In this document: positions 58,337 through 64,000 of the stretch, one piece after another
How positions within the stretch are numbered: position 1 is the first letter of the stretch
Layout: each line of letters begins with the position of its first letter
Made by a program: the position numbers and the translations under genes
Notes under the pieces: model-generated
Seen by the model: only the letters and a program-made list of their open reading frames with translations
Told to the model about the DNA's origin: nothing
Database searches by the model: none
NCBI RefSeq assembly: GCF_010119615.1
Contig: NZ_QOVG01000001.1
Location: forward strand, 310,001 to 374,000
Direction: 5' to 3'
Length of the DNA: 64,000 nt
DNA from: Pseudoxanthomonas gei
GTDB lineage: Bacteria > Pseudomonadota > Gammaproteobacteria > Xanthomonadales > Xanthomonadaceae

Positions 58337-59152
58337 TTAGACGAACCCTTCTTCGATAAGCCTGACGCCTTCGCGCGCAACTTCATGTCGTTGACCCGAT
58401 CCTCCGAGAACCCGCGACCAGCTTTCGATGACAAGCCGCGTGTCATCTCCCTGCCCCTCACCCCAATAGCTGAAGCCACCGTACATGCCAGGCACGGGAA
58501 ACCATGTCGCGTCGGCCCGGGTTGGCAGAGGAAACGTCAGCCGGGGCAATGGCACTGCGGATTCCAACTTGAATTCATCGATGCGCCGACGGATCGTCTT
58601 GTGCAAGCCTGCCTGCAAACGACTGAGGTCTACCCGCTGGTCCTGCGCGTCAATTGCGGAAGCGGAAAACAAGGCATCGAAGACTTCAGCAATCGAGGCG
58701 AGTTTGCGGAATCGACTCTTTGGCACGTTTCGGAGGTCGGGGCGCGCCGCCTTGATTCCGCTTGCGTTCCCTTTGGTGTGCTTCGCAATCTTGAAATCGA
58801 GTATTGGAGGGAGCGGCTGACCGGCGTCGTTGCCAAAGAAAAGAAAGGGGCCCAACTCCAGTGTCTCGTTGTCGAACTGAATCCAGACGACGCAGCCGGA
58901 TGGTTTCTGCGCAAGCCCCAAGTGGATCTTCTGGCTGCTGGCTGCCGCCTCGCGGTGGGAGGTCTTCAGCTGGATGTGACGTACTACACCACTGCGCTCG
59001 ATGATGACATCGTAGCCACGGCTATCCACCTCTGGCTTAGCAACCTCCAGCGAGCACTCGCCCCTCAACCATGAGGTCCGCAGCAACTCCCCCACGAACA
59101 GATGCTCGACCAGCTTCTCGCGGAACGATGAAAACCTGAAGTGCTGATCCAT
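58337..59152 (-). CDS. PD-(D/E)xK nuclease-like protein
   Basis: 271 residues. The N-terminal 65 residues carry FREKLVEHLFVGELLRTSWL, then CSLEVAKPEVDSRGYDVIIE and HIQLKTSHRE. Asp48 with Gln61-Leu-Lys63 fits the metal-binding D and (D/E/Q)xK of the restriction-endonuclease fold. The middle (CVVWIQFDNETLELGPFLFF) and the tail (VESWSRVLGGSGQRHEVARE) are conserved-looking but unassigned. Cytosolic, so a DNA-acting accessory protein is inferred. Confidence 0.75.
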   Translation of the reverse strand: MDQHFRFSSFREKLVEHLFVGELLRTSWLRGECSLEVAKPEVDSRGYDVIIERSGVVRHIQLKTSHREAAASSQKIHLGLAQKPSGCVVWIQFDNETLELGPFLFFGNDAGQPLPPILDFKIAKHTKGNASGIKAARPDLRNVPKSRFRKLASIAEVFDALFSASAIDAQDQRVDLSRLQAGLHKTIRRRIDEFKLESAVPLPRLTFPLPTRADATWFPVPGMYGGFSYWGEGQGDDTRLVIESWSRVLGGSGQRHEVAREGVRLIEEGFV

Positions 59153-59260
59153 GGACTATTCCTTTGCTATTGAGCGTCTTGCGGATTGCAACTTGGAAAC
59201 AAGGTGGGCGGTCGCACAGATCGACAAGCTTCTCTCCATGCCAACCCAATCAAAAAGCAC

Positions 59261-59366
59261 GTCGGATGGGTGGAGAAGAACGCGATATCCATCAGCACGC
59301 GGCGCCCAAGCAACGATGGGTAGACCAGCTTCGCTGTTGAAAGCCGCTGCGCTCCACCCTTCCTAC
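59261..59366 (+). repeat. 105-bp repeat, copy 2
   Basis: Second copy, same orientation as 58204-58308. The end arms are GTCGGATGGG and CCCTTCCTAC (each one or two changes), but the inner CAACGATGGGTAGACCAGCT onward is almost identical. It ends next to the stop of the Mrr-like gene. Confidence 0.8.
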
Positions 59367-59371
59367 GGAGC

Positions 59372-60217
59372 TTAGCGCCCTTCCATCAGCGCTTCTTCGT
59401 ATCGCCTGTCGTTCTCTTCCAGGATGCGCATGGACTCGGCGTTCTTGCGCTGCCATTCGCGCAGCGCCGTGTCCTGCTGTTGCGCCGAGATCTCTGGCGG
59501 TTGAGGACGTTGCCGCTCCACGTTGATTACGACAGGCCTTTGCACTGGCGGGGGCATTGGGACAGAGGCTGGCTTCGGGCGAGTGACCACTGCGGGCGCG
59601 TTGACCGACTTTTCGATTGTCTTTCGAAAATAACCAGGCACGCACTGGACCAGGATGACGAGTGCAATGATCCCGACCCCAAGCCTTACGAGGGGCTCAA
59701 GCGAGGGCTTCTTATTGAGTTGACCGCTTACTGGCCTTCTCGCTGTCTTGTCCTGGCCCAGGCAGTCAGGTCGCCGGGTGCGATCCAGATCGGCTGGGCT
59801 TGTACTTGTTTCGGGCAGAGGACCGAGCATGGCGCGAAGCGCGTCGCCATCTATGAGCTGCACATGCCCTTCGCGTGCGGCAGCATCCTTCGCAGCCTGG
59901 GTGAACTCACCACTGGTGATGACTATGGCGCCAGTAGCATTCTGGTTGATCTTGAGACCAAGCAGTTCGTGCACGGCATTGTGTGGAACCTGCTTGGCAT
60001 TCCAGTGTTTGCACTGGATCAGTACGTATTCTCCGCCCCTGCGCAGCTTCAGGTCGACGCCGCCATCGAAGCGGCTACGGCTGGCGCCCGTTCCCACATG
60101 GTCGACACTCCAGCCTTGCCGCCGGTAGTGGTCAGCCAGCATCTTCTCCAGCTGCTTCCAGTCAACGCGCGTCAAGGCATCATCGCGGCGATTGCGTACG
60201 TTCTTCAGTCCGTTCAT
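59372..60217 (-). CDS. Mrr-like restriction endonuclease with membrane anchor
   Basis: 281 residues from ATG 60217. The Mrr catalytic domain (about 18-135) has YRRQGWSVDHVGTGASRS, Asp55 in GGVDLKL and Gln68-Cys-Lys70, the D...QxK site intact, and GLKINQNATGAIVITSGEFT. Transmembrane helix at about 176-197, then a Pro-rich and helical tail. Related membrane Mrr-like proteins are common in this family; a role against methylated DNA is possible. Confidence 0.88.
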   Translation of the reverse strand: MNGLKNVRNRRDDALTRVDWKQLEKMLADHYRRQGWSVDHVGTGASRSRFDGGVDLKLRRGGEYVLIQCKHWNAKQVPHNAVHELLGLKINQNATGAIVITSGEFTQAAKDAAAREGHVQLIDGDALRAMLGPLPETSTSPADLDRTRRPDCLGQDKTARRPVSGQLNKKPSLEPLVRLGVGIIALVILVQCVPGYFRKTIEKSVNAPAVVTRPKPASVPMPPPVQRPVVINVERQRPQPPEISAQQQDTALREWQRKNAESMRILEENDRRYEEALMEGR

Positions 60218-60255
60218 TCCGTCCCCACGGCGAATGATGGGAGTAGCGCATAACC

Positions 60256-60282
60256 GTAGGGCGGGTCTTGACCCGCCTTCCT
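60256..60282 (+). repeat. REP element
   Basis: GTAGGGCGGGTCTTGACCCG then CCTTCCT; head intact. With the inverted copy at 60339 it forms a BIME-like pair in the gap between the Mrr-like and PLD-like genes. Confidence 0.9.
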
Positions 60283-60338
60283 TGGTCGCAAGCGCACCAC
60301 GGGTGGCGCGCAATAGTTCCGGATGCGTTGATGAGATC

Positions 60339-60368
60339 TGCCGGAAGGCGGGTCAAGACCCGCCCTAC
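60339..60368 (-). repeat. REP element, inverted copy
   Basis: TGCCGGAAGGCGGGTCAAGA then CCCGCCCTAC on the + strand, the full reverse of the 60256 type. The two arms are 56 bp apart. Confidence 0.9.
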
Positions 60369-60377
60369 TAACACTCC

Positions 60378-61094
60378 TCAGACGGCAAACGTTTCGGGCC
60401 AGAGGAAATAGGCGCCGAAGCGGGGGCTCATGCGGAACTCGCCTCCGGCCTGCTTGCCTTTGTCGGTGAGGTGGGGTTTGCCGGACTTCAGTTCCAGGTG
60501 GCCGTTCTCCAGCAACTGGTCTGTCAGCGCGGCGGTCTTCAGCCCCAGCTTACGGGCCAGTTTGGAGGTGGTGAGCTTGCCGCCGGCATCGCCCTCCTCC
60601 GTGCCTGCTTCCTCCTGCTCCTCCGGCTTCTGTTCGGTTGCCGTGTCTACCCGCTCCATGGAAATACGGACTTCTTCGCTGATGCGGATGATGCGCGAGG
60701 CTTCTTCGTAGGCATCCCGGTACAGCTCGCTGTCTTCGGAACGACGGATGAGGATGCCCATCTCGTTGTTGTTGACCTGGCTGAACTCGTAGAGGTTTAG
60801 GCTGGTGATGATGCACAGCTCTTCGTTGAGGTAGCACTTGGCATGCAGATTCTTGCAGAAGCTGGTGCGGATGTAGGTCTGCTCGCGCAGCCAGCTGATC
60901 TCGGCCGGCTGCAGCTCGCTCTTGCCGTAGACCATGCGCACGTCGATCTTGAGGCGGTTCTTGTCGGCCAGGAGTTCTTTCACCCGGTCGTTGATCTTCA
61001 GATAGGGGCTGATCAGGATCAGCCGGTCCTTTGCGTCCTTGATCAGCTCTTCCAGAAAGTAGTTGGTGGCGCTGGTGTTGAGGAACTTGGCCAA
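60378..61094 (-). CDS. PLD-like protein with C-terminal winged-helix-like domain
   Basis: 238 residues. One HKD-like motif: His84-Ala-Lys86 ... Glu91 ... Ser98-x-Asn100 (NLHAKCYLNEELCIITSLN). The usual Asp is Glu91, so activity must be tested; single-motif enzymes act as dimers. Then an acidic linker (about 145-170) and a winged-helix-like end (TTSKLARKLGLKTAALTDQL, LENGHLELKSGKPHLTDKGK). It may be a DNA nuclease or a nucleic-acid-binding partner. Same strand and about 290 bp after HerA. Confidence 0.8.
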   Translation of the reverse strand: MAKFLNTSATNYFLEELIKDAKDRLILISPYLKINDRVKELLADKNRLKIDVRMVYGKSELQPAEISWLREQTYIRTSFCKNLHAKCYLNEELCIITSLNLYEFSQVNNNEMGILIRRSEDSELYRDAYEEASRIIRISEEVRISMERVDTATEQKPEEQEEAGTEEGDAGGKLTTSKLARKLGLKTAALTDQLLENGHLELKSGKPHLTDKGKQAGGEFRMSPRFGAYFLWPETFAV

Positions 61095-61156
61095 AAGATG
61101 TCCTTTCTTAATTTATTGGAGCAACGCTGCCTGCACAACCCATAGTGTCCAGGCGC

Positions 61157-61185
61157 TTCCGGAAGGCGGGTCAAGACCCGCTCTA
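61157..61185 (-). repeat. REP element, head mutated
   Basis: TTCCGGAAGGCGGGTCAAGACCCG then CTCTA (+ strand). The GTAG head is altered. It lies in the 287-bp gap between HerA and the PLD-like gene. A short direct repeat with CCTC(C/T)GT(A/G)ATTGAC follows at about 61297 and 61316. Confidence 0.7.
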
Positions 61186-61381
61186 AACACTTCAGGAGCC
61201 TCCGGAACTAACCCGCCTTACGAGCGATCAGGTCGCCTTCGGTTTCATCATGGCGCTTGACCTAGATAACAGTATCTACGCTGGTACAAACCCGCCCTCC
61301 GTAATTGACGTGCCCTCTGTGATTGACCCGCTTACGCGGCGGCCTTTGCGAGGTAAAAAGATCCTAAACATTCATTGCAGC

Positions 61382-63145
61382 CTATCCTGCCGCCCTAGTT
61401 TGACTGCGTAAACGTTCGACTGCCTGCCGTATAGCGTCTTCGCTAGGCGCTTGTGATCCCCACTCTCTCCAGAAGTCGCGGGTTGCGCTATCGGGCGCTA
61501 TAGCGGGCATATCTAGCTTGATACGGGACGGCAGTAGCACTGCGTCGCCGAGCATTAAAGCCTCACCAGTATCTAGCAAAGGTAAAATGCTCGTAAGGCC
61601 AGACAGCGAATCGGGCATCAGCCTCTTGATGACACCTTGATCGGTCTCGTTAGTCAATCGCAGCGATAGAAAATTGTTGCACTGACTCAGAATTGTTTTA
61701 CTTACGTCGGAAGGTCGCTGACTGACGACCAACAATGAAAAGCCGTACTTCCGCCCCTCTTTTGCAATTCTTTCAAAAGCTCCTAAGGCTTGTCGTTGAA
61801 CTGCATCAGCATCGTCACGAACCGGAAGATACAGATGTGCCTCATCACAAAGTAACGTCACTGGCGTGCGTCGCTCTTGGACCATCCAGAACTGAATATC
61901 GTAAAGCAACCTTGCGAGGGTCCCGGTAACAACAGGGAGAACATCTGAAGGCACTTCCGAGAAATCAATTATCTTTATTCCATGACCTCCGTTCGCACCG
62001 AGTAACCGAACAAGCTGACTTGCGAGCCAGTCATAGCTCAGAGCCTGCGCTGGAGGTGAAAACATAAAGCCATACCTGCGATCGCTAAGCTTCGTATCCA
62101 ATCGCGACAGAAACCGAGTTAGCTTGCCCTCCCACTCACCGACTTTCTCGCCTTTACCATCAGCACGCATTGCCTTGTCGGTATTGTCTTTCTCGAGAAG
62201 CTTAACCAAATCATCAATTGAATATGGAATTGGCGAATCGACCGTGAATGTTTTAGCCACTTCCAGCTGATTTTCAACCTTCAATGTTTGCTCTTTTAGA
62301 CTTCTCACGTGATGCGTAAATCGCGAGGCTTGGTTTGGTGCATTCTGATCACTTCGATCCACTATCATGGATAGCATCTCGTCGCGATTCAGAAGCCAAT
62401 AAGGCAGGAAGAGCACATCATCACTGGGTTTTTCTAAATCCCCAGGCCCCGCTATCCTCACCCGAGTTGCAAATCCTTTCTTTGCAGGATCTGCAAGTGG
62501 CGCGTACTCGCCATGCATGTCAAATACTAAAATATTTGGATATTTAAGTTTAGATGCTCGCTCGAGTATCAATGCCACCGCATAGCTCTTTCCCGAACCT
62601 GTACTTCCGAGAATGGCTGCATGTCGCTGGAAGAATTTATCACCACTAGCGATGGCATCTGCAGTCCTATCAGCGACAAATGAGCCCAGCTTCAATCTTT
62701 CGTTCTCGGGATATTCCGCCCCTAACGTGCTCATGAATCTCTGCAGATTTCCGGCCTCAATGACATAACACTCACGATCAATTTGAGGAAAGCTGTCAGC
62801 GCCTCGCTTGAATGTATTCTTTTTTTCGCCGTCAACAGTTCGGAACGTACCTACTAACGCACCTCGAACCAGATCGGTTGGTACGGCTTCGAGAAGAATA
62901 TCCTCCTCCCCGATAGGGAGTTCTGTCGGCAGGTCATCACGAAGACTCCTTGTTACCCGCTCAGTAATCGCAATCAAGAACTCTCGCTCAGTACTTCCTC
63001 GGATGGCGATTAAATTTCCAATCCCAATTCGCGTTAGGAGGACCGAGTTTGAAACATCGATCGTTACGCGACTAGTATCAACTGACACGACTTTTCCGAG
63101 CAAATCTTCCTTCTCGAACTGAAGCGCTGCGGGCACGTCATTCAT
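61382..63145 (-). CDS. HerA-type ATPase/translocase (anti-phage SIR2-HerA module)
   Basis: 587 residues. N-terminal HAS-barrel-like beta domain (about 12-100), then the P-loop at residues 180-187 (GSTGSGKS), FDMHGEYAPL, Walker B VTLLCDEAHLYLP and the C-terminal QCNNFLSLRL/ETDQGVIKRL parts of HerA/FtsK-type hexameric ATPases. Its ATG overlaps the stop of the SIR2 gene by four bases (63142-63145). The codons and base composition are more AT-rich than elsewhere. Co-encoded SIR2 and HerA form the Nezha-type defence complex. Confidence 0.93.
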   Translation of the reverse strand: MNDVPAALQFEKEDLLGKVVSVDTSRVTIDVSNSVLLTRIGIGNLIAIRGSTEREFLIAITERVTRSLRDDLPTELPIGEEDILLEAVPTDLVRGALVGTFRTVDGEKKNTFKRGADSFPQIDRECYVIEAGNLQRFMSTLGAEYPENERLKLGSFVADRTADAIASGDKFFQRHAAILGSTGSGKSYAVALILERASKLKYPNILVFDMHGEYAPLADPAKKGFATRVRIAGPGDLEKPSDDVLFLPYWLLNRDEMLSMIVDRSDQNAPNQASRFTHHVRSLKEQTLKVENQLEVAKTFTVDSPIPYSIDDLVKLLEKDNTDKAMRADGKGEKVGEWEGKLTRFLSRLDTKLSDRRYGFMFSPPAQALSYDWLASQLVRLLGANGGHGIKIIDFSEVPSDVLPVVTGTLARLLYDIQFWMVQERRTPVTLLCDEAHLYLPVRDDADAVQRQALGAFERIAKEGRKYGFSLLVVSQRPSDVSKTILSQCNNFLSLRLTNETDQGVIKRLMPDSLSGLTSILPLLDTGEALMLGDAVLLPSRIKLDMPAIAPDSATRDFWREWGSQAPSEDAIRQAVERLRSQTRAAG

Positions 63146-64000
63146 GGCTCAAAAACCTCCGTGACAAAATATTTAACATCCCATAATTTCAGTTTCGGCA
63201 AAAAAATATGGTTGCGATCAATTATTACTCGACTGCCTTCGACGCCATCTCTAAATTCACGATCAATGGCCATTACGTTCCCATACTTACTGGCGAGATC
63301 CTTAGCCGAATTTGATAGTTCGTACGTTAAAAGCAGCGTGGGCTTGCCGCCTCGTATCGCGGGAGACAAATGAGTCTCCAGATGATCATCATTGAATCCA
63401 TATCCGATGATCAGAAAGCGGCTCGCGCGATCTATGGCGTCATTTGCCCGTGCTCGATGCTGATCAAATGGGCTTTCATATCCATTGCGAAACTTGTTCT
63501 GTCCAGGCGTAATAATTAGTCTGGCAGCACTTTTCAGCTCGCCTTGATAACTTACGGGCACCCCGTTTCGCAAATACCAATCGAGGCTTCCATGGGGCTT
63601 GTAGACGAGCGCCCGAGTTTTGTACTGAAGTATTACTCTTGGTTTCTTATACGTCGCATTTCGACAAAAGCTTAAATGACTCTCCCGCTCATTAAGCGAT
63701 CCAGCAAATCGGCCCGAGAACATCGTATCCACTCCGAGGCCCGCCTCCTCAACCGCGACCTCAATTAGCCGATCATAGTTGGTAGTAATAATTGGCAGCC
63801 CGGAGAAGGGTTTCAGCATGTGTGCTAGCAGCGGAGTAAGGCGCAGAGTCCGCCTCCCTTCGAACACCTCCGAGATTACCGAGCGCTCAGCCTCCGCAAA
63901 AAATACACCTGTCTCGGCGGAGATAGCGGCTTCTAAACGTTGCGACGGTGCCTTCTGAAGCAGCGCCGCCTCTAGACCCTTCTCTTGTATAAGCGCAACT
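63142..64000 (-). CDS. SIR2-domain protein, 5' part outside the window (anti-phage SIR2-HerA module)
   Basis: The frame is open from 64000 to the stop at 63142 and enters from outside, so the N-terminus (start and first Rossmann motifs) is missing. Visible SIR2 marks are LPIITTNYDRLIEVAVEEAG and ALVYKPHGSLDWYL, with RFLIIGYGFNDDHLETHL near the end. SIR2 defence proteins hydrolyse NAD+ during phage infection. Partner is the overlapping HerA gene. Lower G+C than the rest. Confidence 0.9.
   Translation of the reverse strand, partial: VALIQEKGLEAALLQKAPSQRLEAAISAETGVFFAEAERSVISEVFEGRRTLRLTPLLAHMLKPFSGLPIITTNYDRLIEVAVEEAGLGVDTMFSGRFAGSLNERESHLSFCRNATYKKPRVILQYKTRALVYKPHGSLDWYLRNGVPVSYQGELKSAARLIITPGQNKFRNGYESPFDQHRARANDAIDRASRFLIIGYGFNDDHLETHLSPAIRGGKPTLLLTYELSNSAKDLASKYGNVMAIDREFRDGVEGSRVIIDRNHIFLPKLKLWDVKYFVTEVFEP

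What the first reader, a model, noticed from the sequence alone, without database searches (positions are those of the whole stretch)
60378..64000. SIR2-HerA defence module followed by a PLD/winged-helix protein: possible third component
SIR2 and HerA overlap by four bases, as expected for the known SIR2-HerA (Nezha) anti-phage system. Downstream on the same strand is a PLD-like protein with one HKD-type motif and a winged-helix-like tail, separated only by a REP-bearing 287-bp gap. If this gene travels with SIR2-HerA in other genomes it would be an undescribed accessory nuclease or regulator. The low G+C of the two defence genes indicates transfer.
Basis: partly seen in the sequence, partly recalled or inferred. 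Interest (0 to 1): 0.7.

Follow-up and report, generated by a model that had tools for sequence, protein, structure and literature searches.

The report
Nezha-type defence pair beside unrelated nuclease
A known kind of two-gene bacterial anti-virus system sits next to a gene for a likely DNA-cutting enzyme that does not appear to be part of it; in the relatives examined that gene lives without the system, on chromosomes, plasmids and filamentous phages, and is sometimes next to another nuclease gene.

Summary
The anatomy is real: SIR2 (63142 to past 64000) and HerA (61382-63145) overlap by 4 bp, and a PLD plus winged-helix-like gene (60378-61094) follows after a 287-bp gap with a REP. SIR2-HerA is a divergent member of the known Nezha kind. 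The PLD gene is not its third component as far as could be tested: SIR2/HerA lie in the fetched flanks of 0 of 80 PLD relatives, and PLD is beside 0 of 39 other HerA loci. Instead the PLD gene stands alone, sits on Vibrio filamentous phages or plasmids, or lies within 500 bp of a PD-(D/E)XK nuclease gene (Mrr, NERD or DUF2726: 19 of 80 loci against 5 of 637 control genes). In the window the next gene is also an Mrr nuclease (59372-60217). GC3 is 0.46-0.51 for HerA/SIR2 and 0.85 for PLD. Two same-genus genomes show this site without SIR2-HerA, but also without PLD, so joint arrival is not excluded. The lead worth following is the PLD/PD-(D/E)XK neighbourhood; the window's own Mrr belongs to a stand-alone branch, so here the pairing may be local.

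The parts
63142..64000 (-). SIR2-family NADase-like gene, 344 aa in full (continues about 176 bp beyond the window; L009:4143-5177)
   Evidence: SIR2_2; PADLOC SIR2 PDLC04082 E=1.2e-115 (window part); motifs GSG at 23, TTNYD at 131, HGS at 195
61382..63145 (-). HerA-type ATPase/helicase gene, 587 aa, its start overlaps the SIR2 stop by 4 bp
   Evidence: DUF87; PADLOC HerA PDLC04105 E=5.5e-234; Walker A GSTGSGKS at 180
61156..61185 (.). REP palindrome in the 287-bp HerA-PLD gap
   Evidence: family D4 (L009:2157-2186)
60378..61094 (-). PLD-like nuclease gene (single HKD-type motif) with a C-terminal winged-helix-like domain, 238 aa; phrog_9329
   Evidence: (Nuc 1byr TMt 0.67)
60256..60368 (.). 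Inverted REP pair (26-nt perfect arms, 61 bp between) between the PLD and Mrr genes; strong hairpin
   Evidence: z -7.4, 0 of 200 shuffles as good, region 60250-60378; I8
59372..60217 (-). Mrr-type PD-(D/E)XK nuclease gene with a central hydrophobic stretch (by eye); start taken at the internal ATG that relatives share (longest ORF runs to 60313)
   Evidence: Mrr_cat 87 bits; D83, D87, Q100, K102 identical in 11 of 11, numbered on the 313-aa form

Best explanation
Two independent units lie side by side. (1) SIR2-HerA is an acquired two-gene anti-phage module of the Nezha kind: a SIR2-like NAD-degrading enzyme in complex with a HerA ATPase, active on infection. That mechanism is inferred from the family and not shown here. 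(2) The PLD gene encodes a separate Nuc-like single-HKD nuclease, expected to work as a homodimer (recalled for Nuc), aimed at DNA by its C-terminal winged-helix-like domain. It is a mobile, mostly stand-alone gene that recurrently neighbours a PD-(D/E)XK nuclease gene (Mrr, NERD or DUF2726), most likely to attack incoming or competing DNA. In the window it sits upstream of a resident Mrr gene, and SIR2-HerA lies on its other side in a REP-rich variable site between a Pvc16-domain gene and mrr. Shown: gene order, distribution, composition, relatives without the insert. Inferred: enzymatic activities, defence role, order of arrival.
For: PLD relatives: SIR2/HerA in 0 of 80 loci with up to 10 kb flanks and 0 of 66 viral loci. 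Family sample of 297 genomes: 9 other near-full-length PLD copies, SIR2/HerA in the flanks of none. HerA side: PLD in 0 of 30 genome search HerA loci with about 1.5 kb flanks and 0 of 9 plasmid loci. GC3 0.46-0.51 for HerA/SIR2 against 0.845 for PLD; six of seven other neighbouring genes are 0.80-0.90. Same-genus G063 and G627 have mutase, DUF2058, Pvc16 and Mrr in the window's order without SIR2-HerA. Luteimonas sp. ANT-B3E and Lysobacter profundi have PLD-Mrr about 7 and 3-4 kb downstream of the same mutase gene without SIR2-HerA. Nuclease neighbour: 19 of 80 PLD genes against 5 of 637 control genes, Fisher p=2.7e-15. Published sufficiency of SIR2 herA in V. cholerae.
Against: G063 and G627 lack both SIR2-HerA and PLD at this site, so one joint insertion in the window is not excluded. 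All three genes are on one strand and no terminator-like site was found on the minus strand between HerA and PLD, so read-through is possible. The window Mrr falls in the stand-alone Mrr branch with G063/G206 (98/98), not with the PLD-linked Mrr clade of other Lysobacteraceae (7 rows, 95/82), so the window's PLD-Mrr adjacency is not simply an inherited pair. 61 of 80 PLD genes have no such nuclease neighbour. Of the 39 HerA loci only 13 have HerA at 42% identity or more, and only one at 60% or more over its length, so the window's closest SIR2-HerA kin are thinly sampled.
Confidence: 0.86

Rival explanations
1. PLD is an accessory third component (nuclease effector or regulator) of this particular SIR2-HerA subgroup, gained recently.
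For: Same strand, 287 bp downstream; both absent at the same site in G063 and G627; no terminator-like site found between them on the minus strand. Close relatives of this HerA are few: 2 plasmid records at 60-80% identity, one of which was read.
Against: That relative (Manganitrophus plasmid, HerA 63%) is followed by another ATP-binding protein, not PLD. 0 of 80 and 0 of 39 in the two directions. GC3 differs strongly. The window PLD groups with Lysobacteraceae PLDs, 7 of whose 8 others have Mrr neighbours.
Confidence: 0.06
2. Within the best explanation: PLD and the PD-(D/E)XK gene (Mrr, NERD or DUF2726) form a two-nuclease operon that acts together; the window pair is an instance with an exchanged Mrr partner.
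For: 19 of 80 against 5 of 637; 18 of those 19 on the same strand; 12 changes of the neighbour label at the least on the PLD tree; start offsets of -40 to +9 bp from the PLD stop in L071-L073, L075-L077, L085, L140 (longest-ORF starts); a NERD gene also follows PLD on a Pandoraea plasmid.
Against: 61 of 80 lack such a neighbour; only 1 of 66 viral loci has one within 500 bp (L209) and 1 of the 8 plasmid PLD regions read has one annotated next to PLD. In the window the two genes are 160 bp apart with a strong REP hairpin and the Mrr is from the stand-alone branch. Partner types are partly clustered on the tree (4 changes against a shuffled mean of 6.2), so some cases are inherited.
Confidence: 0.3
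3. Within the best explanation: PLD is simply a stand-alone mobile nuclease gene that accumulates beside other nucleases in variable sites, without functional pairing.
For: Most copies have other neighbours, including housekeeping genes; most phage copies have no such nuclease nearby.
Against: The enrichment lies within 500 bp and not in the remaining flanks of the same loci (about 49-fold per kb), which island membership alone would not give.
Confidence: 0.55

Closest known systems
[quoted passage not shown]
   Same: SIR2-like gene followed by HerA with DUF87; sequence matches to solved SIR2 and HerA chains
   Different: Distant from the solved members (SIR2 E=1.5e-7 at best, HerA 7e-70) and far below the NCBIfam antiphage cut-offs; its best PADLOC models are others than those of most hits
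Nuc-type single-HKD PLD nucleases (Salmonella Nuc 1byr, H. pylori NucT 6ehi)
   Same: PLD fold, TMt 0.65-0.67, one HKD-type motif per chain
   Different: Extra winged-helix-like tail, HxK(x)4E motif; no sequence match to any solved chain at E<=0.01; the top fold hit by E-value is the archaeal DNA-binding protein TrmBL2 (5bqt)
DISARM DrmC and Mokosh PLD proteins (MkoB, MkoC)
   Same: Weak PLD-domain matches
   Different: 32.7 bits against a cut-off of 133 for DrmC; the PADLOC scan of six window proteins showed no other DISARM or Mokosh gene
phrog_9329 (phage protein family, function unknown)
   Same: Full-length match, E=8.5e-108
   Different: Chromosomal copy in a bacterium
Mrr-type restriction nucleases
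   Same: Mrr_cat domain, D...D...QxK core; fold hits MspJI and AF1548
   Different: Hydrophobic stretch after the nuclease domain (by eye); no Mrr_N match

Membership tests
Nezha / SIR2-HerA | SIR2-like gene directly followed by a HerA gene | tested here: met
   4-bp overlap; domains
Nezha / SIR2-HerA | Catalytic N and H of SIR2 and Walker A of HerA present (motif roles recalled) | tested here: met
   TTNYD at 131, HGS at 195, GSTGSGKS at 180; the simple Walker B pattern I tried found nothing, the sequence LLCDEAH is present by eye
Nezha / SIR2-HerA | Reaches the NCBIfam antiphage SIR2 and HerA equivalog cut-offs | tested here: not met
   297.2 of 850 and 31.8 of 500 bits; so it is not of the subgroups those models define, while the two-gene layout and PADLOC models fit
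Nezha / SIR2-HerA | NADase activity and SIR2-HerA complex on infection | not testable with these tools
   bench only
Third component of Nezha | Gene travels with SIR2-HerA | tested here: not met
   0 of 80 PLD loci, 0 of 39 HerA loci
DISARM DrmC | Reaches the NF038319 cut-off | tested here: not met
   32.7 against 133 bits
Nuc-type PLD nuclease | PLD fold with conserved HKD-type catalytic residues | tested here: met
   the acidic residue is E, not D, and the model is weak at residues 101-107
Nuc-type PLD nuclease | DNase activity as a homodimer | not testable with these tools
   bench only
PLD / PD-(D/E)XK pair (proposed here) | PD-(D/E)XK gene within 500 bp of PLD | tested here: met
   Window Mrr 160 bp downstream; 19 of 80 relatives
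PLD / PD-(D/E)XK pair (proposed here) | Window Mrr belongs to the PLD-linked Mrr clade | tested here: not met
   Groups with stand-alone G063/G206 Mrr, 98/98

The most novel reading that the evidence does not exclude
The PLD-winged-helix protein and a partner PD-(D/E)XK nuclease (Mrr, NERD or DUF2726, interchangeable, often with a hydrophobic stretch) form an undescribed mobile two-nuclease module found across Proteobacteria and sometimes carried by phages and plasmids, used to destroy competing DNA. The window carries one, with an exchanged Mrr partner, beside a divergent Nezha module.
Probability: 0.28. Interest if true: 0.62.

Novelty: new member of a known kind. Interest (0 to 1): 0.33.

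Why it matters
It shows how adjacency in one genome can mislead: the apparent third Nezha gene behaves as an independent mobile nuclease gene in every relative examined. It also gives phrog_9329, a phage family of unknown function, a concrete prediction (Nuc-like PLD nuclease with a DNA-binding tail) and a statistically supported class of neighbours (PD-(D/E)XK nucleases), both of which can be tested in laboratory E. coli.

Tried and rejected
PLD as DrmC of DISARM: below the cut-off. PLD as a Nezha component: not borne out by distribution. Window PLD-Mrr as an inherited pair: not supported by the Mrr tree; the 29 stand-alone Mrr rows of that tree were picked as the best matches to the window Mrr, so they are not a random sample, but the nearest two come from genomes without a PLD match. 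Promoter/terminator scan of 59200-61500: 0 promoter-like sites (0.5 in shuffles) and 2 terminator-like sites, both on the plus strand (2.3 in shuffles); says nothing on co-transcription. Genome-level co-occurrence: in the 321-genome class sample 9 HerA and 3 PLD genomes besides the window's own, no overlap; in the family sample PLD matches in 13 other genomes, 4 of them partial, and HerA matches in 20 others, 2 shared (G060, G224), on different contigs; too few to use. SIR2-HerA followed by Mrr was seen once (G232), with SIR2 and HerA only 25-30% identical to the window's; not pursued. The V. cholerae island of PMC11559045 also has an unspecified endonuclease after Nezha in its gene list; it was dispensable there.

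Literature: among the listed titles and beginnings of abstracts (8 to 30 shown of up to 11,689 papers) I saw none on the PLD/Mrr-NERD pair; I read passages only, of PMC11559045, PMC10790759, PMC12839542 and PMC12458937. Most subscription papers are not held. PMC12458937 reports PLD and PD-(D/E)XK nucleases substituting for one another in YprA-helicase systems, a parallel but not this pair. PDC-S69 was named in no paper of that library.

Dropped rows and biases: one search kept the best 80 of 310 relatives, so more distant ones are untested, and several of the 80 loci end short of 10 kb. In one search I gave 66 of the 69 downstream ORFs (left out L079, L087, L148) plus the window Mrr, a plasmid gene (L065) and a 22-base stretch of L062 too short to scan, 56 of the 61 upstream ORFs (left out L085, L098, L106, L121, L127). 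These ORFs are mechanical and some are surely not genes. The neighbour HMMs were seeded with the window Mrr and with genes next to PLD, which favours near hits. Pfam was not: Mrr_cat 9+4 and NERD 4+3 of 68+56 neighbours (counting the window Mrr and L065), against neither family among the 25 of 162 families shown for 124 control genes (drawn from 582), i.e. at most one gene each. Against this, the control set held two Uma2 genes (putative restriction endonucleases, of the same superfamily as I recall), and one control gene (L084:1760-2800) is an Mrr hit. Related loci (7 of the Lysobacteraceae group, 2 Stutzerimonas) are not independent.
Full report
What is there. On the minus strand the order of transcription is SIR2 (344 aa, mostly inside the window), HerA (587 aa), PLD (238 aa), Mrr (281 aa from the ATG shared with relatives). 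SIR2 and HerA overlap by 4 bp. HerA and PLD are separated by 287 bp with one REP copy; PLD and Mrr by 160 bp with an inverted REP pair that folds far better than shuffles (z -7.4). The window is contig C11 310001-374000 of a 3.43-Mb assembly. The nearest named PLD relatives are Lysobacteraceae, so I take the host to be of that family (inference).

SIR2-HerA. Pfam and PADLOC agree on SIR2_2 and DUF87/HerA. GSG, TTNYD and HGS in SIR2 and Walker A in HerA are present (their roles are recalled). Solved SIR2 and HerA chains match by sequence, SIR2 weakly (E=1.5e-7 at best) and HerA strongly (7e-70 at best). The NCBIfam antiphage equivalogs are far from reached, so this is a divergent subgroup. On plasmids related SIR2-HerA pairs (HerA 42-64%) are two-gene units: in the nine regions read the next listed gene varies (two are called ATP-binding protein, of different length; others are a chemotaxis protein, a methyltransferase, a helicase, small or hypothetical genes) and PLD is in none. 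In V. cholerae a deletion that left only SIR2 herA of a whole island kept resistance to two phage isolates (PMC11559045, passages).

The PLD protein. One PLDc_2 domain with HAKCYLNE; H84, K86, E91, S98, N100 and E111 are identical in 99 of 99 sequences. The model (pLDDT 81.4, pTM 0.57, below 50 at residues 101-107 and 145-170) matches Nuc (1byr, TMt 0.67), NucT and other PLD enzymes; the top hit by E-value is the archaeal DNA-binding protein TrmBL2. No solved chain matches by sequence. It is phrog_9329. All 99 aligned members match PADLOC PDC-S69 (in the window protein through residues 173-236) and weakly some DrmC models.

Does it travel with SIR2-HerA? Not in what was examined. In a sample of 297 family genomes PLD matches occur in 14 (own included; 4 are partial) and HerA matches in 21 (own included); the 9 other near-full-length PLD genes have no SIR2 or HerA in the fetched flanks of up to about 9.7 kb. 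Of 310 relatives in the genome collection the best 80 were fetched: SIR2/HerA profile hits in 0 of 80. PLD is in 0 of 30 HerA loci of the genome search with about 1.5 kb flanks and 0 of 9 plasmid loci. Of these 39, 13 have HerA at 42% identity or more; the rest are distant HerA proteins.

Where it does live. All 7 phage records with a match are Vibrio phages; the two read are filamentous (Inoviridae; Tubulavirales), and 6 of the 7 annotate the gene 'DNA repair protein'. 66 viral-contig loci hold a relative, some partial or distant, 46 of them with an f237 ORF1/ORF2 homologue. 621 plasmid records match, 13 over at least 80% of the protein; the other 27 of the 40 listed cover the first half only.

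Its neighbours. Mrr, NERD or DUF2726 genes lie within 500 bp in 19 of 80 loci, 18 of the 19 on the same strand; elsewhere in the same loci 6 Mrr/NERD hits occur in 1202 kb, against 78 kb of near sequence. Other genes of those loci used as anchors: 5 of 637 (Fisher p=2.7e-15). Pfam, not seeded with these genes, gives Mrr_cat 9+4 and NERD 4+3 of 68+56 immediate neighbours against at most one each of 124 control genes, though two control genes are Uma2. The label needs at least 12 changes on the PLD tree, so it is not one ancestral event, although 7 rows are one Lysobacteraceae group and partner types are partly clustered (a quick tree with many open forks). 61 of 80 have no such neighbour; nor have most phage copies (3 of 66 viral loci have a hit at all, 1 of them within 500 bp); 1 of 8 plasmid PLD regions read has an annotated NERD gene next to PLD.

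The window's own pairing. The window PLD lies in a supported group of 9 (96) with 8 others, 7 of which have Mrr next to them. But the window Mrr groups with stand-alone Mrr genes of same-genus genomes G063 and G206 (98/98), outside the PLD-linked Mrr clade (95/82), and Mrr relatives are common (105 of 297 genomes at E<=1e-15). G063 and G627 have the methylmalonyl-CoA-mutase-like gene, DUF2058, Pvc16-domain gene and Mrr in the window's order with neither SIR2-HerA nor PLD between. Luteimonas sp. ANT-B3E and Lysobacter profundi have PLD-Mrr downstream of the same mutase gene (2 of 11 Lysobacteraceae or Rhodanobacteraceae PLD loci tested), without SIR2-HerA. GC3 is 0.46-0.51 for HerA/SIR2, 0.845 for PLD, 0.67 for Mrr, 0.69 for the PDDEXK_5-like gene and 0.80-0.90 for the six other neighbouring genes measured. 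The simplest reading is a variable REP-rich site with a resident Mrr, a PLD gene of family origin and a foreign SIR2-HerA module. A joint arrival of SIR2-HerA and PLD is not excluded by the empty sites.

Verdict. Observation confirmed, third-component reading not supported by distribution. The SIR2-HerA module is a divergent member of a known kind; the follow-up worth having is the PLD/PD-(D/E)XK neighbourhood.

Noticed in passing
window 58337-59152 (-): A 271-aa ORF with a sub-threshold PD-(D/E)XK endonuclease match (PDDEXK_5, 17.2 of 26.1 bits) follows the Mrr gene: possibly another nuclease in a row.
   Followed up: no
L259:4385-8574 (G232): A distant SIR2-HerA pair directly followed by an Mrr gene 64-67% identical to the core of the window Mrr: the only SIR2-HerA-Mrr arrangement seen.
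   Followed up: partly
L077:8947-11614: PLD gene flanked on both sides by Mrr-type genes of different branches.
   Followed up: no
L060:7888-8598 and five other Vibrio phage records: The phrog_9329 gene is annotated 'DNA repair protein' in 6 of 7 records; sequence and model of its relative here say Nuc-like PLD with a winged-helix-like tail.
   Followed up: partly
L209:7209-8681 (viral contig): An Mrr gene ends 27 bp before the PLD gene on a viral contig, so the pair may also be phage-borne.
   Followed up: no
L009:6030-6307 (contig C11 about 375029-375306, some 1 kb beyond the window end): Nine copies at 21-bp spacing, followed by several REP-like palindromes, between the SIR2 gene and the Pvc16-domain gene.
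   Followed up: no
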